Positions 376-53,560 of a stretch of DNA of 64,000 nucleotides are shown here, piece by piece. The position numbers and the translations under genes are program-made. The notes beneath the pieces were generated by a model. It searched no databases, was not told the DNA's origin, and worked only from the letters and a program-made list of their open reading frames with translations. Source of the stretch: Phycomyces blakesleeanus NRRL 1555(-). Taxonomy: Eukaryota; Mucoromycota; Mucoromycetes; Mucorales; Phycomycetaceae. Position 1 is the stretch's first letter. Each line of letters starts with the position of its first letter. The stretch covers positions 921,223 through 985,222 of the forward strand of contig NW_017265135.1 of assembly GCF_001638985.1 (NCBI RefSeq), in the 5' to 3' direction.

Positions 376-446
376 TGCCATGACCTGGAATCGAACCAGG
401 GTCAGCGCGGCCACAACGCGACGTACTGCCACTATACTATCATGGC
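376..446 (-). tRNA. tRNA-His (GTG)
   Basis: On the minus strand a 7-bp acceptor stem GCCATGA/TCATGGC is followed by discriminator A. The T arm is CCTGG-TTCGATT-CCAGG. The anticodon loop is TTGTGGC with anticodon GTG, closed by CGCG/CGCG. The D loop (GTGGCAGTAC) is one base shorter than the usual GTGGTTAGTAC, so mild degeneration is possible. Eukaryotic tRNA-His receives its G-1 after transcription, consistent with its absence here. Confidence 0.88.
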
Positions 447-495
447 TAATGATGTTATTGATATGTGTGTTATAAACAGATCCGGCATTTAGCCA

Positions 496-1354
496 TGTCG
501 TAGTGTCCGGTACCAGAAGGTCAGTCTGCTCAGTGGGTTTGTCTGATAGTTTGTCTGATGGTTTGTTGTAACATGTCGTCCCGGTTATGAGAGGCTGACC
601 TCAACGGTTTGTTGATGTGGTGCTGTGCCCTCGGTGGTAAGAGGAGAATTTTTCTGTGCACAAGAAAAATGTTGTTTCCTTTCTCTGTTCCTTCTATATA
701 CAATACTTTTTCCTTTTCTCTTGTTAATATATTCATTCACATTTTACTCATTCGAAATCATGGTCACCCATGCTAGTAACATTCCTCTTTTACAATATAC
801 ACAATTCATCTTGCCGACATCTCCACACAACATCACTACTTTTATTATTATATTTTTATCGTATCTTTATTTATATATTTTATTCTTGGCTTATCGATTA
901 CTCATTATTTTATTTTTACTATATTTATTTTTCCAAACTTCTATTATCAATTCTAAATCTTGTTGACTATAAAAAAGAAGCAATTTTATTCAATAAAATA
1001 TCATCCATATTCTTCAATCAGTTTCAGTAATTTTTTCTTGTTTTCTTCTCTTTGTGGTTTATACCATTTTATAACATAACTCATTGGTTCCTTGATTTTA
1101 GGAAGGTTGTTTGTCAGTTTTGGTCTTCTCATTGGTTATTACTTTTCTGTTTCATCATTCTTTTTTCATACATCTTTCTCTTTCTCTCACTTTTAACAAC
1201 AATTCTATTGGTAGTTCTCTCTTTTCTTATTTGTCAACTATTGCTGCTTGCCACCTTTTACTGTATTCATCTTCTGTTCTATTCAATAATCATTGTATTT
1301 TATTTGTTAAGTGATCCATTACAATCTACAACAAATCTAATATATCACACATCA
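496..1354 (+). repeat. R3 LTR-like repeat, copy 1
   Basis: An ~859-bp unit beginning TGTCGTAGTG and ending near CACACATCA. It is collinear with the interrupted copy at 53609-58341. It contains a pyrimidine-rich stretch, a TATAAAAAA box (~968) and AATAAAAT-like signals, as expected of an LTR with promoter and processing sites. Frames here encode only low-complexity hydrophobic peptides that I regard as chance. The 5' edge is 50 bp upstream of tRNA-His. The LTR interpretation is inferred; no R3 internal coding region is seen in this window. Confidence 0.65.
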
Positions 1355-2161
1355 ATTGTGATATAGAGTATTGTAAAAATAATCAGCTCTCAATAAAATT
1401 TTGATTGTTTGGCAGTGCAATGATGTTGCAAAATTCTTTGTAATGGTAGAAAAATTATATTCTATTTTTTTAATTTTCTAATAGCAGTCGAGGCTAGATA
1501 GAAAGCAATTTTTCTATTTGTAAAGCAAAACATTAATAAGTACAACAAAAAAGCATTATCTTATCAACAACAACTTCATGCAACCACATCTCGCATCTTA
1601 TTTTCTTACTATATTTAACTAAATAAATCAGCTGGAATTAACATTATTTTTATTATATTTTCTTTACAGACATAATTATCTTCATGATTATGACTTAATA
1701 ATTATTTTATTTTATTTGTACTTAATAATAGTAAAGAACAAATCATATTTAATAGATCTTCAATTATCTAACTTTTTATTAGATTTTTCAATAATTTTAT
1801 TTATTTAATTATTCAACAAGTCAATTGCAAAACTATATATATCACAATACTTGCATTTAATATATATTAATTTTTTTTCATCTTATTTTCTGACAGCTAG
1901 TTCTCTTAATATTTAACACTATTGATATTTTACTTGTTTGATTATCCAAGTATATTAAGTCAAGTCTATTGAGATTGATCAATAGTACTGTTTTTTTATT
2001 ATTGATTTTATTATCTTTAATTCTATATTATCTTTTGAGTTTATCTTTTTCTCTCTTGTGGAAAAGAGAGATTATTTCAATCTACAAGCTCATACAAATC
2101 TCAAAAACAGTGATACTATATCACCTGTCAATGTTTATTATAAATACAAGCATAATACAAC
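1355..2161. other. AT-rich spacer, no gene seen
   Basis: Between the R3 repeat and the left end of element E the sequence is strongly AT-rich with homopolymer runs and no coding signal, tRNA or recognisable terminal repeat. A 70-codon frame at 1969-2181 is low complexity and considered spurious. Confidence 0.5.
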
Positions 2162-2559
2162 TACTACAGTGGGATGAATGACAGTTGGGCCGAAAGTAGG
2201 CACATAACTGCCATTTTTTTGGTTGGAACATAATAAAATCTCTACTATTTGTTGTAAGATGGTAATGTCATTTGTAGCAATTTAAAAAAGTAACATGAAA
2301 ACACTTTTTTGTTGCTGTACAATATTGAAAATATTGTAAAAAATGTTTGTAAGTTGTGATAACTACTTTGAGTATTGAAATATATGTTTTATTGAATATC
2401 AAAGATGTTAACAATTATTAAGATTAATAATTTTTGGAATGTGTGAACAAAATGGTAACTTAACTGCTATTTTTTATTTTTTAAACTATGTTCTTTTTTT
2501 TTAGATATTCTTTTTATCTTGATGAATTGGCAATTTGATTTTATTTAAATCACGTAATG

Positions 2560-2790
2560 ATGTATAGAGCATATAGAGAATGAAGAGAAAAGCATAAGGT
2601 GTATAGAGAATAGAAAAAAAACTGGAGTATATAAAGAAGAAAAGAAAGATGGGACATATAGAGATTAAAAAAACATAAGAAAAAGAGAAAATTAAAAAAA
2701 GAATATAAGATACAAGGATGATATAAAAATTATAAAAGATATAAGGATATAGAGCATATAGAAAAATAAGATAAAAATAAAAAGGATTAC
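2560..2790. repeat. Purine-rich degenerate repeat tract
   Basis: The plus strand is almost entirely A and G with recurring CATATAGAGA/GTATAGAGA-like words and no coding signal. It lies in the subterminal region of element E, between its left end and the transposase stop codon, where CACTA elements often carry repetitive sequence. Confidence 0.45.
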
Positions 2791-5700: not shown

Positions 5701-5975
5701 GTAATTGAAAAATAAATAATACAATTACAGCTCTTTTCATTACCTGAATTGCTAACAGATTCATTTTCATTGCTAGTATCATTTTTGTCATGGTACATGT
5801 CAACATCATCCAGAATAGACTGATCAATTTCAGTCATTGTTGCTGAATCTCCTCTGTGAATTCTCTTGTGGTTTTGCAGCTTCTGGTAGTTATCAAAAAA
5901 CAAGACACATTGATCACAATGATATTGCTGTGTAGATATTCTATCTCTCTGCTGACTGGCGTTGAAAGAAGACAT
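2787..5975 (-). pseudogene. Tnp2-type CACTA transposase of element E (decayed)
   Basis: Multi-exon gene. Exons I can place on the minus strand are 5975-5744, 5683-5432, 5355-4876, 4800-4446 and 4384 onward, with GT..AG borders. The N-terminus has a C2H2-like finger (YHCDQC...QNHKRIH). Exon 3 has a Cys-rich motif (CSSGC..CVDCGK). Exon 4 carries the Tnp2 signature LAILPGPKKP and ASGNIPAV...HIGSHT followed by CRFCE. Exon 5 has FSGSSFFVLDELH and AVDWLDFLLYLVPTLV. The C-terminal part includes GDSVVIVAARLW. It aligns throughout with element F's transposase. A frameshift near 4960 and stops, including TGA at 3267, break it. It lies ~620 bp from the left terminus and is transcribed toward it. In the family this enzyme cuts the terminal inverted repeats; activity here is unlikely. 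Confidence 0.75.
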
Positions 5976-8389: not shown

Positions 8390-8932
8390 TGTGGTGATCC
8401 AGACACTCAGATGTTGGATTTATCACATATAAGAACATATTCATATTGGGATAGTGTAGTAGCTATCATCTTGTTAGTATAAAATATATATAAACGATTA
8501 AGTAATCAGCCCAATAATTATTACAGTTAGTACTGTAGATAATATCTTAAAGATTGTTAAGATAATTATATCATACTGCCAGGTAAACTGTGTCAGATCG
8601 ATATGGAGCTAATTTAGTAGGAAGTCCTAAAGCTCTAGTATAAAAGAGAAAAGAATAGCTAAGAGCTAAAGAAGTACGATTTATGACTTGATGTCATAAT
8701 TGTAACACCAACACTAGTTAAGCAGTAAATACACTCTAATAACCAAATATAGTAAAGGAAGAAAGCCTTAAGAAACTAAGACGTAATGACAAGAGCAGAT
8801 TGTGTTTTCTTATAAAAAGGGACACTTTTTATTTATGAATAAAAAAAATGGATATACAGTCTCAAAGTATTTCTATATGTCTCTATTATCAAATATTTTA
8901 TTTTTCTATTGTTTCGTACCTGAAATACCACA
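8390..8932 (+). repeat. 5' LTR of Ty3-1
   Basis: Starts TGTGGTGATCC and ends TACCACA. A TATAAAAAGGG box near 8813 is the likely TATA element. It is equal in length to the 3' LTR at 13975-14517 and preceded by the TSD GGTCT. A diverged solo copy of the same family lies at 57722-58143 in reverse. Confidence 0.95.
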
Positions 8933-8954
8933 TTTTTTACTTTCAATTCTCGAA

Positions 8955-11306
8955 ATGTCTCAACAATCTGCTGTCAACTCTACTATCGTTTCTGGTGAAG
9001 AAACCACCCGTGTCAACTCTGGTGTCATTCCACCTCCTTCTGCTGCTGGTTCTGCCGACCACGATGGTGATACCGTGATGACTCCCTTGTGTTCTGAGGA
9101 CGGTGCCTTTGATTCTGAAGAAGGTTCTTCTGGTTCTGATGCTGGCCGTTCTGGTTATGAGGGTGCCAATTCTCCTCGCATCTATTTGGGTAACTCTGGA
9201 GTCAGAGTTAACAACAACCTTGCCACCATGGAGATGTTGCTAGCTTCTGCTGAGGAGGACCTCAACACTAAGAAGGGCAACTACTACGCCGCTCTAGGCC
9301 ACTACTTGGGTGTTTCCAAGAGGGATCCCACCTCTACTGCTGCCAAGTATGCTTCCAAGGGTGCCAAGGAAGCACAAGAACTGTTTGCTGAGGCTGAGCA
9401 AATCCTCAAGGACCTCAAGACTTCCACTGCTCCTGCGTCTAAGCCTCATGACAAGAGAAGCACTCTGGTTCCCAGTAACCTACCTTTTCTCCAGCTTCGT
9501 TCTGAGGGTCCTCTGGTGAAGGCCAACTGCGATGTGTTCGATTCGGTGTATGACTTCTGCCAGGAGTTTATCACAGTCCTGGAAGCACACTCTCTGTCCT
9601 TGGATTCCTGCTGGGAACGTCTGTTGCCCACTTGTTTGAACAAGGAAGAACGTTCTTGGTTTGAGGACAAGCTCAAAGGCAAGGCCTACAACTGGAAGAA
9701 GACCAAAAGTATTCTTCTGGATCACTATGACACGCCGTTCCGTAAGTTCCTGAACATGGGCCGTGTCTGGTGCATGAAACAAGGCAAAGGAGAGTCCGCT
9801 CGTTCTTTTGGTGCCAAGTTCCAAAAGTTCCGCCACCAGGCCTCGTTGGACGATGGTGTTCAATTGGTTCTCTGCTTCTGGTGGAATCTGCGTCTGGAAG
9901 TCCGGGAAGCTTGTCTCATTCCTTTGTCAGCCAACTATGGTACCAAGATGCCCTCAAAGATTGAGGACATCATCTCGTTGGTGAGTGTGTCAACAAGTGA
10001 CTCCACTGCTTTGTTACATAATCCTGCCAATGGTACTGCCGCGTCCTCCTGGAGTTCGTTTGCTGCTCACAATGGTGCGTCCTCTCTCTCTGCTGGTTCC
10101 CACAAGGGAAAGAAAAGGTCTTTCTCTTGCGAGCGTGGTTCTCAGTCTCCCAAGAAGGCATGGGACTTCAAGAAGGCGATGAAGGATGGCATCTGTTTCT
10201 CATGCAAGGCTCCCTGGGTTAAGGGACACTCCTGTCCGGAACAGGAGAAGTACTTGACAAAGGTGTCAAGGATGGCAGTCCGCTCCTCTGCTGGTAGACC
10301 AGCAAGAGCTTCCACTGTGGTTGAGGGGAGTCCCTCGTTGTCTTGGTCAGAGTACCAAGACAACACTAGTGCTCTGGCCAAGATGGCATTAGATTGTAAG
10401 TACAATCTGAAAGACATGGTTATTAAAAGAGATTTTAAGAACATGAGCACTAATATTACCTTTCCTATTTTGGCAAATAATTCTATTAGAACCATCTCCT
10501 TGTTGGACTGTGGGGCCACGTTCAGTTCGGTGGACAAGAATTTTTGCTTGAAGAATGGAATAGCCATTAGTTACATCAATCACATTAATAAAGATTTGTT
10601 GAACAAAAACAATGTTCATAAGTATTTTATTCGTTTGGCTGATAGCAATACCCAGATTAAAAGAATCGGTACTTGTGTGATCAGTGTAACTTGCAATAGT
10701 AAGACTATTCAACGCGAGTTTGAAGTGATGAATTTAACTAATAGTCATGAGTATGATTTCAGTATTGGTACTGATTATATGTCTTCTCTTGGTATTGGTA
10801 TTTATGGTTTACCTTTATCATATGATGATGCTGATTCAAGTGAGGAACGTAGAGAAGCCAATAGACGCTTCAACAGTAAGAGTGATCTTCTTGAATCCAT
10901 TGAGAGAGAAAATGAACGAAAGGAAAATAATCCGGCTGTAGGTCCCAAACAGTTTGAGGATGCTATGGATTATATTCGACCGTTCATTAAAGACAATCAA
11001 GATATTCCTAAGGGTTCATTTTGTACTATACCTGAAAGTGTTGTATGTTTGGACACCCCAGAAAATGCTACGGCGTTCAGAAGCCCTTATCCCATTCCTT
11101 ACAAGATGCAAGGTGTAGCGGATGAACAGGTGAAACAATGGCTGGACAATGGTATAATTGAAAGAGCGTCTGCAAACACACAATGGAATACGCCTTTGAC
11201 TGTTGTCAAGAAGACAAACGGTAAAGGAGAAATTACTGGATATCGCGTTTGCCATGATCCCAGATTAATTAATTGCCTGTTGAAGTCAATTGATCGTATG
11301 CCTTAG
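8955..11306 (+). pseudogene. gag-pol: Ty3-1 gag-protease-RT N-terminal part
   Basis: The ATG at 8955 is 22 bp past the 5' LTR and gives the first plausible start (MSQQSAVNST); upstream frame lies within the LTR. A low-complexity acidic N-terminus is followed by a capsid-like retrotrans_gag region (about residues 180-310). Next comes an unusual zinc knuckle, CFSCKAPWVKGHSCPE, with eight residues between the Cys pair and the His instead of four. The protease carries LLDCGATFSSVD, a DCGA variant of the usual D-S/T-G-A. The RT begins with YPIPYKM..QVKQWLDNGIIE. An in-frame TAG (11304-11306) stops translation inside the RT; the same frame resumes at 11307. Products would form capsids and reverse-transcribe the element RNA if the stop were absent. 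Confidence 0.9.
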
Positions 11307-11309
11307 CCA

Positions 11310-12125
11310 TTGATCGGTGAATTGTTTGAAGATTTAAAGGGTGCGAATATTTATTCCACTCTGGATTTGAAATCTGCGTTTAATTCTTTGAGGTTGAACC
11401 CAAAGGACACACACAAACTTAGTTTCACATGGCGTGGTGTACAGTACAAACCTATTGGTACAGTGTTTGGTATAAAGCATGTCAGTTCACAATTTCAAAG
11501 AACTATGAGTATAGCTTTGGAAGGACTATCTTTTGTACGGTTTTTTGTGGATGACATTGTTTGCGCAAGCAAAACGTTCGAGGAACACAAGGAACACTTG
11601 AAGCAAGTGATTGAGAGATTAACAAGGGTCAATTTGAAGTTGAATCCGAAAAAATGTCATTTCTTTCAGAAAGAAATTTATTTGCTTGGTTTTCATATTT
11701 CACCTGAAGGAATTACAATGGACCGCAGAAAACTTGTTAATGTTCTTGAATTTCCTCAACCAAAGACGGGTAAAGATATCCAAAGTTATTGTGGGTTGAG
11801 CAACTATTTTAGAACGTTGATTCCGAATGTATCTTCCATTATGTCGCCACTAGATTCATTGAGAAATGAAAAGTCGATTACCCATTTATGGACAGATAAG
11901 CATCAAACTGCATTTAATAACTTGAAAAAAGCACTTTTGAGTGATCTGGTGTTGTCGTACCCAGATATGAACTCTCCTTTTAGTATCAGCTGTGATTCAT
12001 CTCTTATTGGTATTGGTGCAGTGTTGTATCAAGTCAAGGATGGCAAAAAAAATATATTTCTTTCGTGGCTAAGAGCTTATCCCAAAGTGAAAGAAAGTAT
12101 TCTGCGACCAAAAGAGAATTACTAG
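11310..12125 (+). pseudogene. pol: Ty3-1 RT and start of RNase H
   Basis: Continues the RT in the same frame after the TAG at 11304. The RT fingers/palm include LKGANIYSTLDLKSAFNSL and the catalytic FFVDD motif (usually YLDD/YVDD in Ty3 elements). QKEIYLLGFHIS and a thumb/connection region follow. RNase H begins with DSSLIGIGAVLYQ. Frame is lost at an A8 run (12046-12053), after which the last ~24 codons are out of frame; the true continuation is the next reading frame. Residue order and spacing match Ty3/gypsy pol. Confidence 0.9.
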
Positions 12126-13852
12126 CGTTAGTATTTGCACTCAAGCGTTTTCACAAGTATGTCTATGATTCTCACTTTACCTTGTACACGGATCACAAGG
12201 CATTGACATATCTTCACACCCAACGTGTTGCGAATCTGATGATGATCGCATGGATGGACACGATTTTACAGTATGACTTTAAGATCGTTCATTTGCCTGG
12301 TGTTTCGAATGTGCTTCCTGATGCGTTGTCACGTTTATCTGAAGAGACTGAAACATTATCAAATGAACTGGGTGGGGATAGTGTGGTTAGATCCATCATG
12401 AGAAATAGTGCTGTCACTATGGAACCGCTACCAGACATCTTGAGTGGTGAGTACTTTACTCCTCCCACAGAAAATGAAAGGAATAAGTTATTAGTTGAAG
12501 AACATTTGAAAGGTCATTTTGGTGTAGAAGCTATACTACATGCCTTAAAGAGAAAAGGTATCTATTGGACCAGCTTGAAGAGTCAAGCAAATGATCTTAT
12601 ACAATCGTGTATACAGTGTCAACGTCATAATATCACAAGAAAAGGTTACAATCCTTTAAGACCTGTGACTGCAACACTTCCTGGTGACAGTTGGGGAATA
12701 GATCTGGCTGGGCCATTTACAACGTCGACTAGAGGAAATGAGTACTTGTTAGTGATGATAGACATCGCAAGCAAATTTTATGTATTGCATACCATACCTG
12801 ATAAAAGGGCAGCTACGATTGCGTTACAAGTACTGGACGTCATTAGTACATGGGGTCCGATGAGAAAGTTGCAGAGTGATTTTGGATGGGAGTTTGTGAA
12901 CTCGCTGATGACATGTATAAAAGAGAATGTTGGTTTTGAACATGCATTGATTTCGCAGTACCATCCTAGAGCTAATGGTGCAAGTGAAAGAGCTGTCCAG
13001 TCGGCAGTGAACACCATTAAAAAACAAATAGTTGGTAATGTCGCTGATTGGGATCAGAAGGTGCCATCTGCGCAGTTGTTTTTGAATAGCAAGTATAATG
13101 CTAGGACTAAGAGTACGCCATTCTCGTTAATGTTTGGAAGGAATCCAAATGACTTTGTCGATTTTAGTAAAGAAAAGGATAGTGCAACTGCTGAACAGAT
13201 TCAGAAAGAGTTGCAAGAAAAAATTAAAAGAATGACTGAGATAGTCTACCCTGCCGTGTTTGAACACGTAAAGCATGTCACAGAAAAGCAAAAGGAACGC
13301 TTTGATGGAAGTCACAAAATGATAGATCTGGTTCCAGGAACCACGGTAATGATTTTGGTGACAGAAAAACAGAATAAATTAGATCCGAAGTATAAGGGAT
13401 TCTACACTGTTGTTAGAAAGACTGCTGCCAATACTTATGTATTGAAAAATGAAAAGGGATTTTTAGAACCAAGGAATTATCCTCCTTCTTTATTGAAAAA
13501 AGTTTCTGACAAGGTATTAGAGCAAAAGAATGACTTTTTTGAAGTCGAAGCAATTATTGGGCACATAAAAGATGACAAGAACAATTATTTGTATAGATGC
13601 AAATGGTTGGATTATGATGAGTCTCACGATACCTGGGAGCCAGAGGATCATTTTACCGATCCTAAGTTCATAAAGGAATACTGGCAAAGAATTGGTGAAG
13701 CTCCAGAAGGTATCAAAGACATCAATAAGGCCAATAAGAAATTATTAAAGGATATGAAAGTTGCATATTCCGCACCTAAAGAAAATTCAGGTACTAAAAG
13801 GAAGAATTATGCAAAGACAGCTTATCAAAAGAAGAAACACAGTAAGGTCTAA
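12065..13852 (+). pseudogene. pol: Ty3-1 RNase H, integrase and chromodomain
   Basis: Continues pol in the shifted frame. RNase H has YSATKRELLALVFALKRF and LYTDHKAL. The integrase H2C2 zinc domain is HLKGHFG...IQSCIQCQRH. The integrase core shows GIDLAGPF, LQSDFGWEF and ASERAV, supplying the D, D, E residues. The C-terminal chromodomain, about residues 495-555 here, reads VEAIIGHIKDD..YRCKWLDYD.SHDTWEPEDHF, with the aromatic and WEP features of chromovirus integrases. These domains steer integration to modified histones in related elements. A Lys-rich tail ends at TAA 13850. The element was probably once one gag-pol ORF; the A-run frameshift makes it a pseudogene unless it is a sequencing error. 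Confidence 0.92.
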
Positions 13853-13961
13853 ATAAAGAGTTATTTAAGTACCACAGTACTCGTTTAAAATAAAAAAAAA
13901 AAAAAGAATAAGCTGATCAGAAGAATTGCATAGAGTACTTGAACGGTATTTAGTTAATACC

Positions 13962-13974
13962 TGGGTGGGGATAA
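13962..13974 (+). other. Polypurine tract of Ty3-1
   Basis: TGGGTGGGGATAA directly abuts the 3' LTR start at 13975. Position and purine bias fit the plus-strand primer of LTR retrotransposons. Confidence 0.7.
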
Positions 13975-14517
13975 TGTGGTGATCCAGACACTCGGATGTT
14001 GGATTTATCACATATAAGAACATATTCATATTGGAATAGCGTAGTAGCTATCATCTTGTCAGTATAAAATATATATAAACGATTAAGTAATCAGCCCAAT
14101 AATTATTACAGTTAGTACTGTAGATAATATCTTAAAGATTGTTAAGATAATTATATCATACTTCCAGATAAACTGTGTCAGATCGATATGGAGCTAATTT
14201 AGTAGGAAGTCCTAAAGCTCTAGTATAAAAGAAAAAAGAATAGCTAAGAGCTAAAGAAGTACGATTTATGACTTGATGTCATAATTGTAACATTGACACT
14301 AGTTAAGCAATAAATACACTCTAATAACCAAATATAGTAAAGGAAGAAAGCCTTAAGAAACTAAGACGTAATGACAAGAGCAGATTGTGTTTTCTTATAA
14401 AAAGGGACACTTTTTATTTATGAATAAGGACAACTTATAGACAGTCTCAAAGTATTTCTATACATCTCTATTATCAAATATTTTATTTTTCTATTGTTTC
14501 GTATCTGAAATACCACA
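13975..14517 (+). repeat. 3' LTR of Ty3-1
   Basis: A 543-bp copy of 8390-8932, with ends TGTGGTG and TACCACA, followed by TSD GGTCT (14518-14522). Differences from the 5' LTR cluster near 14425-14440, where the 5' copy has an A-run. Confidence 0.95.
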
Positions 14518-14576
14518 GGTCTCCTCCACTCACAGCAAGTGTCAAGCCTGCTCGCAAGAGAAGCCAAAAATCATAG

Positions 14577-15961: not shown

Positions 15962-16043
15962 GTCGCTTTGGCGGAGTGGTTAACGCGGTGCCCTGCTAAG
16001 GCATTGTCCTTTGGACGCGCAGGTTCGAATCCTGCAGGCGACG
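15962..16043 (+). tRNA. tRNA-Ser (GCT)
   Basis: Acceptor stem GTCGCTT/AGGCGAC with one G-T pair, anticodon loop CTGCTAA (anticodon GCT), a long variable arm typical of tRNA-Ser, and T arm CAGG-TTCGAAT-CCTG. The 82-nt length fits a class II tRNA. No intron is seen. Confidence 0.93.
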
Positions 16044-16103: not shown

Positions 16104-16353
16104 TGTCGTTCCCAATCTGGGTTGGTATTCCTTTTACTAAAAGTCAAAAGGTCAAACCCACTGGGAATCAAGGAGTATATGTAAAATCAAAGAGAGGATA
16201 AAAGATATTTTTTATTGATATGCATTGAATTGTCTTATATGGTTTTCTAAACTAATACTGTGGTTAATGCTCAGGAAGATATTACTGCCCATAAAGAAGT
16301 ACTGCAGTTAATTATTTTCAGATTTTATAAATTCATCAAAATAATGTCTGACA
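16104..16353 (-). repeat. Solo LTR2 downstream of tRNA-Ser
   Basis: The 250-bp unit runs from TGTCGTTCCC to ATGTCTGACA. It matches the LTRs of Ty3-2 at 48079-48440 and 53124-53459, with an internal deletion. No internal sequence adjoins it and no clear TSD remains. It starts 61 bp past the tRNA 3' end. Confidence 0.8.
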
Positions 16354-27868: not shown

Positions 27869-27994
27869 ACAAAAGAATTAGAAAGCATGTAGCTTAACAA
27901 AAGTAGAATAGAAACCGAAACAGACATTTATAATGGCTGAGTAGGTTTAGAAAAGATATAAAAGAGGGCATTATTTCATTCAATAAAAGTTATT

Positions 27995-28165
27995 TATCTT
28001 TCTAAACTAATACTGCGCATTATTGGCAGTAGTTATTATTTATATTTAATTAAAGAAATAGTCATTATACTGCGGTTAATGCTCAGGAAGATATTACTGT
28101 GCATAAAGAAGTACTGCGGTTAACTATCTTCAGATTTTACGGATTCATCAAAATAATGTCCGACA
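27995..28165 (-). repeat. Partial LTR2 near tRNA-Asp
   Basis: Matches the 3' half (plus-strand sense) of the Ty3-2 LTR, from TTCTAAACTAATACTGCGC to ATGTCCGACA. The other half has diverged or is missing. The terminus at 28165 is joined directly to an inverted LTR2 end snippet. Confidence 0.7.
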
Positions 28166-28196
28166 AAAGGAAGACCAACTCAGATCGGGAACGACA
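28166..28196 (+). repeat. LTR2 terminal footprint beside tRNA-Asp
   Basis: Thirty-one bases, AAAGGAAGAC..GGGAACGACA, match the element-sense 3' end of LTR2, in opposite orientation to the adjoining partial LTR. It lies 27 bp from the tRNA-Asp 3' end. A similar snippet adjoins tRNA-His at 316-348. Confidence 0.65.
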
Positions 28197-28223
28197 CGAC
28201 AGTAACATAATTAAGTAAAACTA

Positions 28224-28295
28224 CTCTCCGACCGGGAATTGAACCCGGGTCTCCCGCGTGACAGGCGGGGATACTCACCACTATACTATCGAAGA
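28224..28295 (-). tRNA. tRNA-Asp (GTC)
   Basis: Minus-strand acceptor stem TCTTCGA/TCGGAGA with one T-G pair. D arm TAGTATAGTGGTGAGTAT, anticodon stem CCCGC/GCGGG with loop CTGTCAC (anticodon GTC), and T arm CCGGG-TTCAATT-CCCGG. All arms fold; 72 nt. Confidence 0.93.
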
Positions 28296-28949
28296 ACATG
28301 TTTACTTATTAGATTGCGCTAAACAAACAAATCCATAGCCATACAATATAAAAACAGGCAAAGAAGTATACTTGATAATAAAGAAGTATCACTATGACAA
28401 ATAGGGGCGGTTTTTTGCATTTGTGACTTTGTTTTTGGCCTATAATAATTAAAAAATCACCAAAAATTCAAAATAAAACAAGAAAATCTATGTTTTTTGA
28501 AAAGGTTGATGTTGTGGGAAGAAAATAAAGCAAAATATAATATACACAAAAGAATTTGTGAGAACTTGTGTAGGTTGTTTATTTCAAAAGAAAAGTAAAG
28601 AATAATAAAATTCGATTGTTTTTCTACACGGAACTATCCACTAATATTTATATGTTTTTCTAATTTATAATTCAGTGTGTGCTTAAGTAATCTTTATCAC
28701 GATGAGTCATCTTCCAAGAGTATTGTTCTTCTGGAAAGATCCAGAAAGACCAATTGATATGATACTTCTCCAGTCAGATCAGTCCAAGAGTTTTGGTAAA
28801 GAAGAGCATTTATGCTATTGGTAATATTTTAGTATTCCGACCCAGATACTCAGGTAATGTTTCATAATATTAAATAGTTGTAGTTGTAGTCTCTCAATTA
28901 ACACTGCAAAAAAATGGCCGATTCCCATACGTGATAGGATGTAAAATTC

Positions 28950-37194: not shown

Positions 37195-37199
37195 TATAT

Positions 37200-38606: not shown

Positions 38607-38779
38607 ATTCTATTCAAAAACCAATATTTTAGTTTATATATTATTTTCTCTTATTATATTGGTAGAAATAGCATAAAAAGAGTTTTCTATTGTTAGCAAT
38701 AAGAGATATTTCTTTTTATATGGGCACTCAGGAAATACTTTGATCATATTATTATTTTTAATTGAATAATTGAGACTTT

Positions 38780-44179: not shown

Positions 44180-44396
44180 ATTGTGTATAGCTTGAATTAT
44201 AAAATAAAAAAGGAAACAAGTACTACAAATACTTTATTTGATATGAATTTTTTATTGTCCATCTAAACCAATAGAATACATCGAAAATACACCCCCAACT
44301 TAAATTAAAAAAACGGCTGAGCCGAAAAAAAAACCTGACATTTCCACTACCTTTCTCATTACTTAAAGCTATAGTATTTTTTTTATTTTTCCAGTG

Positions 44397-45071
44397 TTGT
44401 CTGCGTTGTCTTTCAGCAGAAAGTACTGCAGCCAATCAATCGATCACAACTCATCTTTACCACCATCTGGCTTCATCCAGGATTGTGACTGATTATCATC
44501 TTCATAATAAGAAACAAACTCAATAGCGCTGGGAGTGGACATACTTTTATTATAATAGTTTAATGTAAGATACAGGCGATACAAGAAGATAATTTTTTTA
44601 TAAAAAAAAAGACAAAAAGAATGGAGTTAAAATGAAGGTAGATGAGTATTGATTATTATTTATAGCTTTATAAGAGTAATATATACTGACAAGCTATTTT
44701 GACTAAAATGTTATACCTGTAATAAATGGGTTTGTAAAAAAAGTGGTGTAGATAATTAGATTATGAGATGAAGAGATGTTTGAGCTCAAGAAGAATGATT
44801 TTTATTGATGAGAATTGTTAAGAGTTCTTGTACTGATTGGGAGGACTTTTAGAGACAGAAAATATCATTTGCATACGTATGCTTTGATGATATGCAGATA
44901 CAGATTCAAGCAGGGAGAGATTCTGAAGAGTTATAATTGGATAATATAAACAAATTCGTTTTTATCCACAACAAAACAGACTTCTTTATGTTGATGTATT
45001 TGAATATTAAACATTGACTATGTTTGCTGACAGTGACGGCATTATGAGCATAGCATTACCTAATATGTATT
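44397..45071. other. Spacer between D and R1 LTR, no gene seen
   Basis: No open frame over 70 codons, no tRNA and no terminal-repeat pair was found. Composition is like the surrounding spacers. Confidence 0.4.
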
Positions 45072-45330
45072 TGTCAAGTCTCAATCTGATATTTCTTTTC
45101 TGGCACTTGTAACTAAGTTGCAGAATCAATACCACTGGGGATCGTCAATTTTTAAGAATAGTTTTTTCAATAAGAATAAAGATGCTTTTTATTAATTATA
45201 TTTCTTGACTATTTATACAAAATGATATTTGATTTCTGGCTAAAAGAATAGCTACAATAGTATGTCTTAGATACTTGTTGTCCAGTAATATCTTCTACAA
45301 GTATATTTACTATCTTCAACATCTAAAACA
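45072..45330 (-). repeat. Solo LTR, family R1, copy 2
   Basis: 259 bp, TGTCAAGTCTC...CATCTAAAACA, the inverted counterpart of 4-253. Identity is high at both ends and in the middle (GATCCCCAGTGGTATTGATTCTG). No TSD is evident (GTATT/TATAC). Confidence 0.75.
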
Positions 45331-45478
45331 TATACAAGAGACCAATCAGCATTGTCAAGATCTTTTATTCTAAAAAGTCAACCATTACTGTTTGCTTGCA
45401 ATTCCCAATTTTAAACACCAATGTCAACTCTGACATATTTTGAACTAATTTTGAACTTTTTTTAAAAAAGGTGTGAAC

Positions 45479-47999
45479 GCACCGCCTTATTTTCTGTTGG
45501 TTTAAATTTGAGACAAAAAGATTCAAAGGAATGAGTGACCGCTTTTTCTTTTGTTTTTTTTTTTAAAAATAACAGTATTTGTTTATGAAAAAAAAAACAG
45601 TGTTTGTTTATGAAAAAAAAACACTTCTTTATAAAATACAAAATAATACATGTGTAACGGTTTTTTTATTGACATTGGGTATTTATATTTCTAAAACTAT
45701 TTATATTTCTATTTCTAATATTATCTATTCTATCTAACAATTCTTTAACACAACGAGTCATATCATTTATCTCAGACACATCAATGTCAGAAATAGTTTG
45801 CATGTGTTTGAGATCAAGTCTTTGATGATGAAGTAAGATGGTGTGAGTGATAAGGTCTGTAATAGACGTGTCAACATCATTTTGAGCACCCACAACATCT
45901 TCTCTACCATCTTCTTCGTCAACAATCACAACTTCTTCTTCTTCAGCTAACACTGCTGGTCTTTGCATTGCCAAATGATTGGCATCTCTTTGAATTGTAT
46001 ATAAGATGTTAATCTTACGGTATCTTTTGAGAAGAAATAAATGCTTGCAAGGCACTTGTTGGGAGATGTATCTGGGCCATGAACAGCATTCGATTAAATC
46101 ATTTACAACAGTGATAGAATACCATGTTGTATCATTTGTAAAAGACTTGATTTGCCACTCGCCATCAGAGTCATCCATACTAGTACTAATCACATTTAAT
46201 GGACTGATGATCATAGAAGGGAGTATGTCATCTTCTATCTTGGATGCAGCAAATTCATTTCTTGCAAGTTCGTTTTCTACCGGCCCCATCTTTCCATTGT
46301 TTAAGTGAATACGATTCACTTCTTGTTTGTAGAAATACTCTACATCGTTTGTAAGAATAAACACAAGGCAATCCAGTCTTCTGATTCTAGTACGGCCAAA
46401 GTAGATAGTCTTAAGCTGGTTATACCATGACTCAATATAGTTATTTGTCAAATATCTTCTATGCAAGTCATCGAAATAAGGGCGCCCCCATCTTTTCAGC
46501 AATACTTTGCTTCCAGTCCATTGTGTTTCGAAGTATCTCAAGAAGTGTAACTGGTCGGGTATATCGCGTTTGAAGTCAAGGATTCTTGTCAAAAATACTT
46601 CTTTGTTTGACTCCATCAAGATATACTTCAGCTTGTTCTTTAACTTCTGCTTGTATGCTGCCAGCTGGGCTGATGTAAATGACGCAGCAAGTCTTACTTT
46701 ATTGTCGAGGTTTGTTTGCCAAGCATGAAGAATATGAAATTCACAATAGTGAATTGCAACATGAGGAAATGCAGATGTAATCGCATTAACTTTGGGAATA
46801 CTACAGTCAATGGTGATATTCAAAGGACAGAAGTAGCTTCTCTCACGAAGATGCATAAGCTATTGGCTGATTGGCCTGACTGTCTGGTCATTTGTAACCA
46901 TGTAAGCAACAGGAGACCATTTTCCAGTTACATTGTGTTGAGTCACTAAAGAGTACATGACCTTTCCACTTCTTGCTGATATGCCATGAGTAGCGTCAAG
47001 ACAGAATGATGTAGCTATTCTCATAACTCTCACTTGGGCAGGGGATTGAAAGCCAAAGACGAAAAGATTGCTTTCAATGTTGTTAACACGAAGGTCTCCA
47101 GTAAAAACGCAATTTGTTTCTGGCAATTTCTCATTCATCCAGATAGCAATAGATGTCTTCTCATCAGAGTTGAATATATACAACAAATTTGTCATCTATT
47201 TTATTTCATTTTACCAAAACTGTTAAATACGAACTTCTTTTTATCTTTTTTTAACACATCTTCTTCATTCTATTGTATATCTCTTCATAGTTTGGCTTTC
47301 TAACACCAACACCCCAGCTGTCAATCTGTTGAAGGACAGATATTCTTGTGCTTCTACAGCTGCTTCCACTTCTCAGTTGATCTTCAATCAACTTAATAGC
47401 TTCAAAAGGCAAGGGCAAAGTTCTAATCTCTGATCTGTCTCCAGGAACATGATTGTTATGGTCCCTTGTCATACAGAACGTAACAATAGTAGGAGACTTT
47501 TTGAACTGCTTTATTTTCAAAGCTCCATTACATCCACATGCCTTTGATTCTTTTTGTGCAGGGCGTGAATCTCGCTCTGGTATATATATGTCTGCGCGAT
47601 GACACTGACGTGTTTCTCCAAAAATATATTCTTTTGAATCAAGACATCTTTTTTTATTCCATTTCGTTGAACAAAGAGTATTGATTTGGTCAAGACAACG
47701 TCTCCATTCACTAACTTTTACAGGTATGACTACTTTAAAAGGAAGCATCTTAATCCCCTCCAAAGACGAGTTGACTAAAACATTTTGAATGTTTGAAATA
47801 TCGTAAATAATTGGGTTGGACATGTTGAGATTGGTGTTTAATTTGTATTCGAAATAAAGAGAAGGAAAAGAGAAGGAAAAGGGAAGGAATAAAGAAATCC
47901 CCAATAGAAAATTAACTTTTTCAAAAAGCCACTTGCAAAGCCTCTGACAGAAAAAAAGCCTCAATTTCAAATTTGAACCAGCAGAAAATAAGGCAGTGC
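45479..47999 (-). mobile_element. Mutator-like (MULE) element G
   Basis: 33-bp TIRs: GCACCGCCTTATTTTCTG... at 45479-45511 and its inverted partner at 47967-47999, with 3 mismatches. Inside is a FAR1/MULE-type transposase pseudogene. Flanking sequences GTGTGAAC and AAGTGGAC match at 5 of 8 bases, only a weak hint of the 8-9-bp duplication typical of the superfamily. Confidence 0.8.
45666..47823 (-). pseudogene. MULE/FAR1-like transposase (element G)
   Basis: The start is the ATG at 47823 (MSNPIIYDISNIQNVL). The N-terminal part has a FAR1/FLYWCH-like DNA-binding region (RQCHRADIYI, KACGCNGALKIKQF, TRDHNNHVPG). The MULE core follows: CLDATHG (first D), ITIDCS (second D), CEFHILHAW, and NNYIESWYNQLK (E). 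A SWIM-type zinc finger is present as CCSWPRY..VPCKHLF, with adjacent Cys rather than C-x-C. The C-terminus is acidic (ending 45666). Frame is lost between 47251 and 47195 (indel or intron), and TAG at 46860 replaces what is probably tryptophan in PISQ-W-LMHL. The family cuts and pastes DNA between such TIRs. Likely inactive. Confidence 0.85.
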
Positions 48000-48078
48000 A
48001 AGTGGACAGTCACAATTAAAGCTGATTGCCTAAGTTCAAGATGGACTTGTTTTATCTTTTTTTTGCCCTTTTTTTGAA

Positions 48079-48440
48079 TGTTGTTCCCAATCTGGGTTGG
48101 TCTTCCTTTTACTATAACAAAGTCAAAAGGTCAAACCCACTGGGGATCAAGGAGTATATGTAAAATCAAAGAGAGAATAAAAGATACCTTTTATTAATAT
48201 GAATTGAATTGTCTTATATAGTTTTCTAAACTAATACTGCGCATTATCCGCAGTAAACTATTATACTCTATTTAATTACAAGAGAAGTCCTTTTACTGCG
48301 GTTGATGCTCAGAAGATGTTACTGTGGTTAATCTTTACAAGACATTACTGCAGTTCGTTATCTATGAGGTATCTTTGACATATAGAACTGCTGCGGTCAA
48401 TTATCCCGATTTCTCGGATTCATCAAAATAATATCCAACA
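48079..48440 (-). repeat. 3' LTR of Ty3-2
   Basis: TGTTGTTCCC...ATCCAACA on the plus strand. It retains CTTTACAAGACATTACTGCAG (~48333), lost from the 5' copy. Confidence 0.9.
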
Positions 48441-51400
48441 TCACCCCCTCTCGAAACTGTTGATCGTCCTCGGTCAACTCTGGTAGACTCTATCATCGAG
48501 AACAGCAAGGTGGAAGAGGAATCGATGGCTAGATCACGTCGCATATTGTTACGAGCAGCGGTTGGGTGATACCAGATGCAGTCAAAATCGTCGGATTTGG
48601 CTATTTTGAGGCGATCAGCATGAACCCAAGAAGTATAAGGGACACCTTCCATTGTTGTGAGCTTGTATATATTCTTATCAAAATTTTTATCTACTACAAT
48701 ATATGGGCCCATCCAGTTATATTCTAGTCCAAATTTGTTTTCATGCCACAACAACAAATGTTCACCAATTGCGAACTGATGAGGTTTCATGATCCAATCC
48801 CATCGTTCCTTGTCTTGTTGGCTGTTGGCGGTTACTCGAGCATCAGCATTTTTGCGAGCCTGTTGGAGATTATGAAGAAAAGGGATAGCGCCATCGGATA
48901 CGAGGGTCGGGTCGTCAGGGATAGATGTATCCATAAATGGACGTAGGGGATCGCCAGGAATACGAGGTTTGCAGCCATAAGTCAAGAAAAATGGACTGAA
49001 CCCAGTTGTATGATGCTTTCTGATTTGGCAAGCCCAAAGTGCTGTTTCCAGATATTCGTTCCACCGGTGAATGACACTATGTACATATTTACGTAACATC
49101 TGTTTAAGAACACCATTTAACCTTTCACATTTTCCATTAGTACGTGGGTGAAATGCTGAGGTTAATTTATGATGGAGCTTAATTTTCTTAATGTAAAAGC
49201 TCAAAATATGTGACATAAAGTTTGCACCACGATCTGTCAGAATTTCGTCTGGGCAACCAAAATGCATGACTATTTCTTTGTACAAAAAGTTGGCGATAGC
49301 TTCGCCCGTAGCAGCAGGAACAGCACGTGCAATTGGCCAATTCGTAGCATAGTCGACGGCAACCAAAATCCATCGATTTCCATTGATTGTAGTGGGAAGT
49401 TCTCCAATGAAATCGAGATGCCAACGAGAGAAAGCAGGGGGGATATCCAATGGTTCCAAAGGGGCATGGTGTATGTTGCGTTCTGCGTTTGAGGCCAATT
49501 GACATTGAGGACATTTCGATAACCATTCTCGAATTTAACTTCTCATGGCTGGCCACCACCAATGCTTCTTCATTAAATTATACACCGTTGTTTCTCCAGC
49601 ATGTCCGAAACCATTGTGGAAATTATTTACTAAGTCTGCATGCTTGGCAAACAGTGCAAAACGAATTTCTTGTACCGTGTCACCTATTTTAACGAGACGG
49701 AAAACCTTTTGGTTGTGGACCACAAACTTATTGCGTTGCCAATGAAGTAATTCTTTTATGTCTTCTGGCCATTCATCTTCTTTTCGTGCATAAAATTTTG
49801 GCCAGTCGGACGTTTGTGAGTCTGGTATGGTGTACAGGTATTCTGGTTCCATTGATTTAATTAATGTTGCATCGTATTCTGGGCCATCGAGACGAGAGAG
49901 CACATCAGGGACACCATTGTCTTTGCCCGGTTTGTATTGAATTATCGGGTCGTACAGCTCGAATTCAGAAATCCACCTTATCAGGCGAGGCGTGGGCTTA
50001 ACCTGACTGCGAAAATACTTGAGTGGTAAGTGATCGGTGAATACAGTGAACGGTTTTCCTTCGATCATGCAGCGCCAAGTACGCAAGGCATGTAGAATAC
50101 CAAGTAACTCGCGCTCTTGAGCAGAATACGATCTTTCGGCAGGGGAGAGTTTTTTCGATTCGAACGCTAATGGTTTCCAACTTCCGTTTTCGTCTTCTTG
50201 CATTAATACGGCACCAACACCAAAATCTGAAGCATCTGTTTCAATGCGGAATGGTTTATCCATGTCTGGTGCAAGTAATACAGGTGCAGTACTCATTTTC
50301 TCTTTTAGTAAATCGAAACTTTCCTGGCATGTCTCCGTCCAAACGATAGGCCGTCGTTTTGGTCCTGTCCCTTTAGTTAAGTCTGTTAAGGGCGCACCGA
50401 TTCCAGCAAACCCAGGGATGAAGCGGTGGTAGTGCTGTGCAAGGCCAATAAATTGTCTAACTTCTTGTACATTTGTTGGCGGTGTCCATTCTTTTATAGT
50501 CTTTACTTTGTCTGGCGATGGTAAGATGCCTTGCGCAGATACGTTGAATCCAAGGAAAGTTAGTTCGTTTTTGTTAAATTCGCATTTTTTAAGGTTGGCA
50601 ATTAATTTCGCTTCACGTAGTCGGTTTAACACATGTTGTACATGTTCTTCGTGTTCTTCTGGTGTCGTGCTAAAGATTAGGATATCATCCAAATAGACTA
50701 AGGCAAACTTATCCAAACAATCTCCAAGAACTTTGTTCATAAGATGCTGAAACGTCGGTGGGGCATTGGTGAGACCAAAGGGAAGAACCAGAAACTCGTA
50801 TTGGCCATATCGGGTGTTAAAGGCGGTTTTTGGCACATCTGAGTCTTGAATTCTCACTTGATGGTAACCGCTTTTGAGGTCCAAACTGGTGAAATGGTTT
50901 GCTCCACGAAGGCGTTCCAAACACTCATCGATGCGTGGCAATGGATGGTTATTGCGGATAGTAACTTTGTTCCGGGGCTCTGTAATCAACACACATGCGC
51001 ATCTCACCATTTTTCTTTTTAACAAATAAAATTGGAGCACCCCATGGCGAAGAACTCGGACGAATTAAGCCGAGGTCTAGAAGTTCCTTTAGTTGTTGCT
51101 GTAATTCGTCGAGTTCTCGAGGGCTCATTTTGAATGGCGGTTTATTGACAGGGTAGGCATCTCCAGTGTTTATAACGTGTTGGACGTCACGGTTCGGCGG
51201 TAATCCAGGTAAACCGTCTTGGAAAACGTCCTCGAATTCTTTTACTAATTTCATCCAGTGTTCATCATTATGTATTTCTTTTTCTGTCTTAATGTGCAAC
51301 AAAAAGCATTCGGCCTCCTCTCTCCTAGAGAGTTTCTCAATTTGTTTTGCAGATATCAGATAGTTTAGGTGAGGTTTAGTAGGACGGGGCCCATGAGGAC

Positions 51401-51962
51401 GCAAAATAAATTCTTGTTCATCACAATGTAAAGACCAGCTATCGACATGCCAATCTGGGACGGGTTTAGCCATTTGCAACCAAGTGCGGCCAAGAATCAA
51501 GTCGAATTTAGTGGGAAATACAAAAGCATCAATGGTGTCAGTGTATCTATTTAAAGAGAGGTTTAATGTTGCCTTCTGATGGATCTTAATGCTGTGTCCT
51601 CCTGCAGTTTCGACTGATTGTCCGGGTATATCCAAAATGTGTGTGGCCAAATGGGCGATCTGGGGTGATACATAGTTTGCACTAGCACCACTATCAATTA
51701 ACACCAGGATTTGTTGTCTGTCAAGTATAGCGGCGTATAAGGGCAAGTCTGTGTCCATGGCAGCATGGAGATCTTCTAAGAAATGTTGGTCAGCGGTGAG
51801 ACAAGGGTCACAATTTTCTTCAGACATAGTCTCAGGCTCTTCATTGGTAACATTTGTATACTGTTCAGACACGTCTTTATTAATTTCTGGTTTGCTAGTT
51901 TCGCTAATATTATTAGCCTGTGGGGAGGATTTTTCTTCCATTGAACACAACCGACCTCCCAT
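48401..51962 (-). pseudogene. pol: Ty3-2 pol (protease-RT-RNase H-integrase)
   Basis: The ATG at 51962 overlaps the gag stop (TAATG). Protease has [16 protein letters not shown] has GVDV-type entry [24 protein letters not shown] and catalytic YLDDILIFS. RNase H has IETDASDFGVGAVLMQ, AQERELLGILHAL and VFTDHLPL. Integrase has the zinc domain (HNGFGH...CPQCQ) and core DFIGELP, LTDRGANF and GKCERLNG, giving D, D, E. The C-terminal GPY/F-type motif is WMGPYIVVD. A frameshift near 50975, just after CVDYRA, and a TAA at 49535 (PAMRS-stop-IREWL) inactivate it. The frame runs to 48401, inside the LTR. The gene copies the element and inserts it; here it is a relic. Confidence 0.9.
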
Positions 51963-53083
51963 TACAGTTGTGTTTCACGAAAACCCTGCTTCTTGCTACG
52001 TGCCTCATCTAACTGTCTAATCGCTGCTAATCGATCCCTACAGTTCCTCTTGAAGTGACCAACTTTGCCGCACCAATGGCAAGTAGCCACATTACATTTC
52101 TGAGGGGGGCAAGATCGGTAGTTATTACGGCGACCTTGAATCGCATCCAGGTCCATGGGCTCGGGACCACTGTACTGCTGTTGGTATGGCTGTTGGTACG
52201 TCTGTTGGTATGGTTGGGGGATGGGTGCGTAGTTGTTCTGTTGCCCCAAGTGGAGGCCACTGGCATATGCCAAAGTGATGTTGCAGGCATTGTCAACGTC
52301 GACAGGTTGGGCGGCAAGAACATTTCCTCATATGGTGGGGTGAAGTCCGCGGACAAACTTGTCAAGGGCTTCTTCATCGTTCATTCCAGGTAACTCCAAC
52401 TGGATGTCGTGGAACGCGTCGATGTACTCTGCGACTGTTCCTGTTTGGTATAGTCGAGCAAGGCGGTCCCTGGACGTCTGTAGTGAGTAGACTAGACGAA
52501 ATTCTCCCGACAGAGCCATCTTGAACTCATCCCAGGTTGTTGGATGTTTGTCCTTTACTTCCATGCGTCTCCACCATGTGTCTGTTCTGTCACACAACAG
52601 ATTCACTGCAAATTCACAGGCTTTTGTTGCAGAAAAATTGTAGTATCTGGTGTAACGTTCGACTGCGCGCAGCCAACCATCCACTACTGTGGCAGAACGT
52701 TCTCCATGAAAGCAATCAGGTTGCTTGATTCGTTCAGCACGGGCCTCCTGCTGCACCATGATTGCTTTCATTGCTTCGGCAACGGCAGCAGCAATTGCTT
52801 CGGCTGTTAGAGTGGCAGTTTGGGGGGCCATTATTTCTTCTTGTTCTTGTTTGTTCTTTCCTGTTAAGGTTGCGGCTAGTTTTGTAGCTAGTTTGGTCCA
52901 CTTCTGTTCTCGGGCAGGGGTCTTCTTAATATGCTGTTCTTCAGGGATATGAGGAACACGCCGATTCTTCTTGTAGTCGTTTACTAATTCGCTGGGTAAC
53001 AAGTCCTGGACTCGTTCTTCAATCTCGAATTGGCTAAGGGTCTTCTTATCAAATATGTCTTGGTGTCTTTCAACCGGATTCAT
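51962..53083 (-). pseudogene. gag: Ty3-2 gag
   Basis: The start is taken as the ATG at 53083 (MNPVERHQDIFDKK); the frame is open upstream into the primer region without an ATG. Features are an Ala-rich helix (LTAEAIAAAVAEAMKAIM), a capsid-like retrotrans_gag domain (QPDCFHGE...FVRGLHPTI), and a canonical CCHC knuckle CHWCGKVGHFKRNC preceded by Gln/Tyr repeats (QQPYQQQYSGPEPMDLDAI). A TGA at 52328 interrupts HPTI-stop-GNVLAAQP, probably a former TGG. The TAA at 51962-51964 overlaps the pol ATG by one base. Confidence 0.87.
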
Positions 53084-53123
53084 CAAAGGTCTTGTTAGAG
53101 GAAAAATAGCTTCAGCTACCAAT

Positions 53124-53459
53124 TGTCGTTCCTGATCTGGGATGGTCTTCCTTTTACTATAGCAAAGTCAAAAGGTCAAACCCACTGGAGATCAAGGAGT
53201 ATACGTAAAATCAAAGAGAAGATAAAAGATGTTTTTTATTGATAGGAATTGAATTGTCTTATATAGTTTTCTAAACTAATACTGCGCATTATCCGCAGTA
53301 AACTATTATACTCTATTTAATTACAAGAGAAGTCCTTTTACTGCGGTTGATGCTCAGAAGATGTTACTGTGGTTCATTATCTATGAGGTATCTTTGACAT
53401 ACAGAACTGCTGCGGTCAATTATCCCGATTTCTCGGATTCATCAAAATAATGTCCGACA
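53124..53459 (-). repeat. 5' LTR of Ty3-2
   Basis: TGTCGTTCCTG...GTCCGACA. Same family as 48079-48440, 16104-16353 and 27995-28165. Confidence 0.9.
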
Positions 53460-53488
53460 CTGTTCACACCAATTGTGTGTGTAAAAGT

Positions 53489-53560
53489 TTCCCCAACGGG
53501 GAATCGAACCCCGGTCACGACGGTGAAAGCGACGGATCATAACCACTAGACCATTGAGGA
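53489..53560 (-). tRNA. tRNA-Glu (TTC)
   Basis: Minus-strand acceptor stem TCCTCAA/TTGGGGA with a T-G pair. D arm TGGTCTAGTGGTTATGATC, anticodon loop CTTTCAC (anticodon TTC), and T arm CGGGG-TTCGATT-CCCCG with discriminator A. 72 nt with all arms formed. Confidence 0.92.

What the first reader, a model, noticed from the sequence alone, without database searches (positions are those of the whole stretch)
376..53560. LTR2 sequence lies just downstream of all four tRNA genes
Seen: sequence of the Ty3-2 LTR family occurs 18 bp (His, 316-358), 61 bp (Ser, 16104), 27 bp (Asp, 28166-28196) and 29 bp (Glu, 53459) past the 3' ends of the four tRNAs, on either strand. Known: yeast Ty3 integrates at Pol III start sites upstream of tRNAs, while Dictyostelium TRE3 elements choose downstream flanks. 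Inference: this Ty3 lineage targets the downstream side of tRNA genes, an arrangement I do not know for Ty3 elements.
Basis: partly seen in the sequence, partly recalled or inferred. Interest (0 to 1): 0.78.

Follow-up and report, generated by a model that had tools for sequence, protein, structure and literature searches.

The report
Jumping genes landing behind tRNA genes
In this fungal genome a family of virus-like jumping genes is found mostly a few dozen bases behind transfer-RNA genes and, in our sample, never in front of them, a side reported before for such elements in social amoebae.

Summary
LTR2 termini lie 17, 60, 26 and 27 bp past the four tRNA genes of the window; the His piece is a short diverged remnant seen by eye. 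Of 50 tRNA genes picked without regard to repeats, 31 have LTR2 within 150 bp downstream and 0 within 1,400 bp upstream; with three related LTR families, 44 of 50 downstream and 0 of 50 upstream within 146 bp. Of 20 stretches picked by LTR2 alone, 16 hold a tRNA gene, all 16 with the LTR on its 3' side. First insertions start about 13-81 bp past the gene (median 42); 41 of 42 lie beyond the first T-run. Solo LTRs carry 4-bp duplications (27 of 39). The element is a Mucorales-type Ty3/gypsy element with no detectable chromodomain. Best reading: integration targeted to the downstream side of tRNA genes. Such targeting is published for dictyostelid Skipper-2, so 'unknown for Ty3 elements' is wrong in general; I saw no fungal case in the listings and passages examined. 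Other repeats, LINEs where coding sequence is visible, take the upstream side.

The parts
376..446 (-). tRNA-His(gtg) gene
   Evidence: ARAGORN; Rfam RF00005 61.1 bits
316..358 (+). LTR2-like head remnant (317-348) next to an opposite LTR2-like terminus (349-358), 17 bp past the 3' end of tRNA-His; strand = element sense of the head
   Evidence: read from sequence, 27 of 32 bases; below the BLAST cut-off
1..268 (.). LTR3 (related LTR family, same side), cut by the window edge; head 107 bp past tRNA-His
548..844 (.). Repeat on the upstream side of tRNA-His, one of the upstream repeat families
15962..16043 (+). tRNA-Ser(gct) gene
16104..16353 (-). LTR2 solo LTR with internal deletion, 60 bp past tRNA-Ser; strand = element sense, opposite to the tRNA; no 4-bp duplication visible
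28223..28296 (-). tRNA-Asp(gtc) gene
28165..28196 (+). 32-bp head of an LTR2, 26 bp past tRNA-Asp, followed by the next LTR2 in the other orientation; strand = element sense
27990..28165 (-). LTR2 (query bases 136-362) abutting the 32-bp head; read as a nested insertion; strand = element sense
53487..53561 (-). tRNA-Glu(ttc) gene
53124..53459 (-). LTR2, 5' LTR of the long element, 27 bp past tRNA-Glu, element in the direction of the tRNA
52331..53122 (-). gag-like open frame (Retrotrans_gag)
50952..51962 (-). protease-region open frame (gag-asp_proteas, below the curated cut-off)
49538..51040 (-). reverse transcriptase, RNase H and start of the integrase zinc domain (the last just below its cut-off)
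48404..49498 (-). integrase core, SH3-like C-terminal domain and tail; frame runs into the 3' LTR; no chromodomain match
48079..48440 (-). LTR2, 3' LTR of the same element; 88% identical to its partner; pol and gag are split over several frames, so an old, broken copy
53649..53945 (.). Repeat on the upstream side of tRNA-Glu, same family as 548-844

Best explanation
LTR2 belongs to a Mucorales lineage of Ty3/gypsy LTR retrotransposons whose integration is directed to about the first 100-150 bp downstream of tRNA genes. Shown by the sequence: position, one-sidedness, both orientations, 4-bp duplications, repetition at many unrelated tRNA genes, and presence at the same place of copies with nearly identical LTR pairs. 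Inferred: the integrase complex is tethered by something that sits asymmetrically on tRNA genes (TFIIIC on the B box, terminating or recycling Pol III, or an ordered nucleosome past the terminator). The element then integrates just past the T-run terminator, sparing gene and terminator; later insertions land in older ones and build nested stacks. TFIIIC or Pol III is my preferred tether; which partner is not shown. The confidence is for targeted downstream integration; for TFIIIC or Pol III as the tether I would say about 0.5.
For: tRNA-picked: LTR2 within 150 bp downstream of 31 of 50, upstream within 1,400 bp of 0 of 50; LTR2-5 families in the first 146 bp: 44 of 50 downstream, 0 of 50 upstream, all 44 with a match of 30 bp or more. 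LTR-picked: 16 of 20 stretches hold a tRNA gene, 16 of 16 with the LTR on the 3' side, ten isotypes; of the other four, three are LTRs about 5 kb from a partner LTR that has its tRNA, the fourth lies 10 kb from an LTR2 with one. Among 59 distinct complete LTR2 copies in all held loci (partly tRNA-picked), 46 have a tRNA within 250 bp and 46 of 46 are downstream, 21-135 bp. 27 of 39 solo copies show exact 4-bp duplications, 21 different sequences. Among 50 loci only one pair (L051/L052) shares the first 20 bp after the tRNA at 17 or more positions, so the pairs were not copied as units. Six LTR pairs were compared: three from elements of about 5.4 kb are 99.2, 99.7 and 100% identical and their outer LTRs sit 21, 25 and 39 bp past a tRNA; two more (C5, 10 kb apart; L052, 1.5 kb apart) are 100%; the window pair is 88%. 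41 of 42 first insertions lie beyond the first run of four T.
Against: No integration event was watched; all is inferred from genomic copies. Counts are samples (50 of 63 scored tRNA matches among 2,452 first-look candidates; 20 stretches for ranks 2-21 of 42 near-full-length rows among 69 matches). 19 of 50 tRNA genes have no LTR2 within 150 bp. The LTR4 and LTR5 queries were cut from downstream flanks of two of the 50 loci, so the 44 of 50 partly rests on families chosen there. An LTR3 solo copy in the window (45072-45435, flanks TATT/TATT) has no tRNA match between 44,500 and 46,000. 12 of 39 solo copies lack the 4-bp duplication. U6 genes, also Pol III genes, gave hits of 19-22 bases in 4 of 19 flanks, which I judge noise, and none longer; a tether common to all Pol III genes is thus not supported, though most U6 copies share their flanks and are not independent.
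Confidence: 0.9

Rival explanations
1. Random integration followed by selection: insertions elsewhere were purged, and the 3' flanks of tRNA genes are a harmless refuge.
For: 41 of 42 first insertions spare the first T-run, as selection would also give; the old window element (LTRs 88% identical) is at such a site.
Against: Three elements with LTR pairs 99.2-100% identical are already at tRNA genes, which leaves little time for a sieve. The window is tens of bases wide while 0 of 50 are upstream, where other repeats lie next to the genes. Another Ty3 element of the same genome, LTR1, is not concentrated there (15 of 16 hits upstream, one 1,200 bp downstream).
Confidence: 0.05
2. Copying of whole tRNA-LTR blocks by segmental duplication.
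For: One pair, L051/L052 about 7 kb apart, is such a duplicate.
Against: Only that pair among 50 loci shares the first 20 bp after the tRNA; many isotypes, different spacings, both orientations and different 4-bp duplications.
Confidence: 0.01
3. Targeting to a nucleosome or open-chromatin feature beside highly transcribed genes in general, not to the tRNA transcription complex.
For: The insertion window (about 13-81 bp for first insertions) is broader than the 2-3 bp of yeast Ty3 (PMC8632968 passages).
Against: Strict one-sidedness (0 of 50 upstream) and no insertion longer than noise at 19 U6 genes (not independent copies).
Confidence: 0.04

Closest known systems
Skipper-2 (Ty3/gypsy) of dictyostelid social amoebae
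   Same: Ty3/gypsy element on the downstream side of tRNA genes, 7-136 bp (PMC5006619, PMC5911963 passages)
   Different: Skipper-2 is a chromovirus with a diverged (group II) chromodomain; LTR2 has no detectable chromodomain. Most Skipper elements have a polypyrimidine stretch in place of a PBS (D. fasciculatum Skipper-2 is an exception); LTR2 has a TGG motif next to its 5' LTR. The host here is a fungus of Mucorales type
Ty3 of Saccharomyces cerevisiae
   Same: Best match among the sequences of solved structures (7q5b, E 8e-54); tRNA genes as targets
   Different: Ty3 inserts in a 2-3 bp window at the start site upstream and its vestigial chromodomain acts as a ruler (PMC8632968 passages); LTR2 lies downstream in a wider window and no such domain is predicted, in a model of modest confidence
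Ty3 LTR elements of Rhizopus oryzae
   Same: Same order of fungi; LTR elements 'often co-localizing with tRNA genes' (PMC2699053 passages); nearest named RT relatives include Rhizopus
   Different: Side and distance are not given in the passages seen; the figure was not available
TRE3 (downstream) and TRE5 (upstream) of Dictyostelium
   Same: Division of the two tRNA flanks between element families; TRE5 about 50 bp upstream (PMC5006619 passages) resembles the upstream repeats here
   Different: TRE3 is a non-LTR element; no external B box by the strict pattern here (0 of 50; a looser pattern 7 of 50, against 5 of 50 farther out)

Membership tests
Ty3/gypsy LTR retrotransposons | RT and RNase H lie before integrase in pol | tested here: met
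   Order RT-RNaseH-integrase in window frames; RNaseH-integrase in L052
Ty3/gypsy LTR retrotransposons | LTRs with TG...CA ends and short target duplications | tested here: met
   TGTC...GACA-type ends; 4-bp duplications in 27 of 39 solo copies
Ty3/gypsy LTR retrotransposons | tRNA primer binding site next to the 5' LTR | tested here: inconclusive
   ATTGGTAGCT follows the 5' LTR in several copies; primer tRNA not identified
[quoted passage not shown]
Skipper-2 | Group II chromodomain after the integrase core | tested here: not met
   No Pfam chromo match at E 0.1 in two frames nor in five relatives, while P0079, a more distant one, shows it; the model ends in a helix and a low-confidence tail
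Skipper-2 | Polypyrimidine stretch replaces the PBS in most members | tested here: not met
   TGG motif present instead; one published Skipper-2 also keeps a PBS, so this is not decisive
yeast Ty3 targeting type | Insertion at the Pol III start site upstream of the gene | tested here: not met
   0 of 50 upstream
yeast Ty3 targeting type | Vestigial chromodomain after the C-terminal domain | tested here: inconclusive
   None in the model of the window piece, but its tail has pLDDT under 50 and only 16 sequences were aligned
yeast Ty3 targeting type | Integrase binds TFIIIB | not testable with these tools
   needs protein interaction data
TRE3 | non-LTR retrotransposon | tested here: not met
   element has LTRs and an integrase

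The most novel reading that the evidence does not exclude
A fungal Ty3/gypsy lineage without a chromodomain has evolved, independently of dictyostelid Skipper-2, a new tether that reads the 3' side of tRNA genes, and shares these genes with LINEs that take the 5' side, so that most tRNA genes of the genome are two-sided landing pads.
Probability: 0.6. Interest if true: 0.75.

Novelty: new variant of a known kind. Interest (0 to 1): 0.62.

Why it matters
The 2018 review says that insertion downstream of tRNA genes is found only in dictyostelid genomes (PMC5911963 passage). A fungal example with a different integrase end would show that the downstream side can be targeted more than once and apparently without a chromodomain. 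Element classes splitting the two flanks of the same genes in one genome give a natural comparison for finding the tether, and the nested stacks record the order of insertions.

Tried and rejected
Chance and block duplication were considered first; speak against both. External B box downstream as in Dictyostelium: strict pattern 0 of 50 downstream and 46 of 50 inside the tRNA; looser pattern 7 of 50 downstream, 2 upstream, 5 farther downstream. Chromodomain in the integrase: none found. A 5-bp duplication as in Ty3 (recalled): 0 of 64 rows; the flanks show 4 bp. SRP RNA as another Pol III control: no match, and none in the control genomes, so uninformative. 5S genes were located (5 matches) but not read for want of letters. 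Host name: not settled. Size, contig number and G+C recall Phycomyces blakesleeanus (recall only); the nearest named RT relatives are Mucorales, apart from one frog entry, and one host protein has a single weak match in Rhizopus stolonifer (E 2.5e-5). Whether Rhizopus elements lie downstream could not be tested: no fungal genomes other than the window's own are held.

Rows dropped before counts: two artefact chains (438 and 473 bp) and copies held twice; hits not anchored at a family terminus (42 of 50 tRNAs remain) and minus-strand hits of the LTR4 and LTR5 queries, whose far ends are not true termini. The LTR3, LTR4 and LTR5 queries do not begin exactly at the terminus, so single distances can be off by a few bases. 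In one search, hits of 19-22 bases in 4 of 19 U6 flanks were judged noise; the 44 tRNA flanks each have a match of 30 bp or more.
Full report
What was checked. The window lies at C2:921223-985222 of a 53.5-Mb assembly of 60 contigs. It holds four tRNA genes. LTR2 was defined by the two LTRs of the element 48079-53459, real copies and no consensus. Three of the four claimed neighbours are found by BLAST (Ser 60 bp, Asp 26 bp, Glu 27 bp past the gene); the fourth (His, 17 bp) is a short diverged piece accepted by eye, 27 of 32 bases.

Test from the tRNA side. LTR2 occurs within 150 bp downstream of 31 of 50 and within 1,400 bp upstream of 0 of 50. Four more LTR queries (one from the window, three cut from downstream flanks of the set) likewise hit no upstream flank (0 of 50 each) and 23-32 downstream flanks. 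Using LTR2 with three of these families, the first 146 bp downstream are hit in 44 of 50 and the last 146 bp upstream in 0 of 50; each of the 44 has a match of 30 bp or more.

Test from the LTR side. A search with one LTR2 copy gave 69 matches, 42 of them nearly full length. I read 20 stretches, those of ranks 2 to 21, with about 300 bp of flank. Sixteen of 20 contain a tRNA gene and in 16 of 16 the LTR is on its 3' side; the isotypes are Leu, Thr, Asn, Cys, Val, Arg, Ala, Asp, Glu and Pro. Of the four without, three lie about 5 kb from a partner LTR that has a tRNA gene beside it; the fourth lies 10 kb from an LTR2 beside tRNA-Lys. Even if all 2,452 candidates were genes, 250-bp downstream windows would cover about 1.1% of the assembly (my arithmetic), so about 0.2 of 20 would be expected.

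Anatomy of the insertions. Complete solo LTR2 copies have TG...CA ends and exact 4-bp flanking duplications in 27 of 39. Element direction relative to the nearest tRNA is opposite in 30 and the same in 16 of 46, at most a weak preference. First insertions start about 13-81 bp past the tRNA end, median 42 (n = 42), and 41 of 42 start after the first run of four T, the likely Pol III terminator. Behind the first one, further LTRs are often nested, several times close to base 30-32 of an older LTR2. Apart from one duplicated pair, no two of the 50 loci share the first 20 bp after the tRNA: these look like separate events. Of six LTR pairs compared, three from elements of about 5.4 kb are 99.2, 99.7 and 100% identical and their outer LTRs sit 21, 25 and 39 bp past a tRNA, so recent copies are there too; two further pairs (C5, L052) are 100% and the window pair is 88%.

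The element. Frames for gag, RT-RNaseH and integrase are present. The best match among sequences of solved structures is yeast Ty3 Gag-Pol (7q5b, E 8e-54); the predicted fold of the window's integrase piece matches foamy virus and Ty3 integrases (mean pLDDT 67, TM-scores under 0.5). After the SH3-like domain (residues 247-299) the model has a helix and a disordered tail; no chromodomain was found in two frames or in five relatives, while a sixth, more distant protein (P0079) shows one. Named RT relatives near the top of the list are Mucorales fungi: Circinella, Rhizopus, Lichtheimia, Mucor, plus one frog entry.

The other side. Upstream flanks are as full of repeats (70-82% covered between 50 and 950 bp; downstream 72-85% between 50 and 400 bp, falling farther out), but of other kinds. 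Six repeat queries, each cut from the upstream flank of one of the loci, hit 34 of 50 upstream flanks (the six sources included) with the near edge 0-49 bp from the gene; for five of six all hits have one orientation. Their four hits on a downstream flank (L042, L014, L044, L026) lie just upstream of a neighbouring tRNA gene by the coordinates. In two of these loci, frames 2.2-4 kb upstream code for LINE proteins: endonuclease and reverse transcriptase in L053, reverse transcriptase in L055, with the 5' end towards the tRNA; that the near repeats are the ends of these LINEs is inferred. LTR1, a chromodomain Ty3 element of the window, gives 15 of 16 hits upstream, 76-1,182 bp away, at 12 loci.

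Mechanism. Targeting is the reading that fits one-sidedness, repetition and youth together. The tether is inferred. TFIIIC on the B box, or Pol III at termination, is preferred because the window begins just past the terminator; U6 genes lack such insertions (hits of 19-22 bases in 4 of 19, judged noise), which points to tRNA-type promoters, but weakly, since most U6 copies share flanks. Yeast Ty3 reads TFIIIB upstream with a vestigial chromodomain as ruler (PMC8632968 passages); the lack of such a domain here would suit the broader window.

Comparison and novelty. Skipper-2 is the published precedent for a Ty3/gypsy element downstream of tRNA genes (PMC5006619, PMC5911963; passages). In Rhizopus oryzae co-localisation with tRNA genes is stated without side in the passages seen (PMC2699053). 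Searches of the held library brought up no paper whose listing, or whose passages where I read them, reports a fungal downstream case; most listed papers were seen as listings only, and subscription papers are missing. I therefore call this a new variant of a known kind.

Noticed in passing
window 548-1364, 53649-53945; L053:2-1768, L055:2-790: Repeats with the near edge 0-49 bp upstream of tRNA genes, one orientation for five of six queries, several families; LINE endonuclease/RT frames farther upstream in L053 and an RT frame in L055. TRE5-like arrangement in a fungus.
   Followed up: partly
window 8390-14274: LTR1, a chromodomain Ty3 element with LTRs 98% identical; its LTR gives 15 of 16 hits upstream of tRNA genes among 50 loci, a possible third preference.
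   Followed up: partly
window 45072-45435: LTR3 solo copy with TATT on both sides and no tRNA match in 44,500-46,000: an exception to the rule for its family.
   Followed up: partly
L007, L061, L004, L012, L049, window 28165: Later LTRs repeatedly land near base 30-32 of an older LTR2; hotspot or plain geometry of a fixed window is open.
   Followed up: partly
G000: C2, C4, C5, C6, C10, C11, C13, C19, C40: 19 equally scoring U6 gene copies (114 bp), most with similar downstream flanks: an amplified U6 family.
   Followed up: no
window 20517-21836, 31962-34430, 61810-63987: Three tnp2-type transposase frames (one also matching Plavaka below its cut-off) in one window.
   Followed up: no
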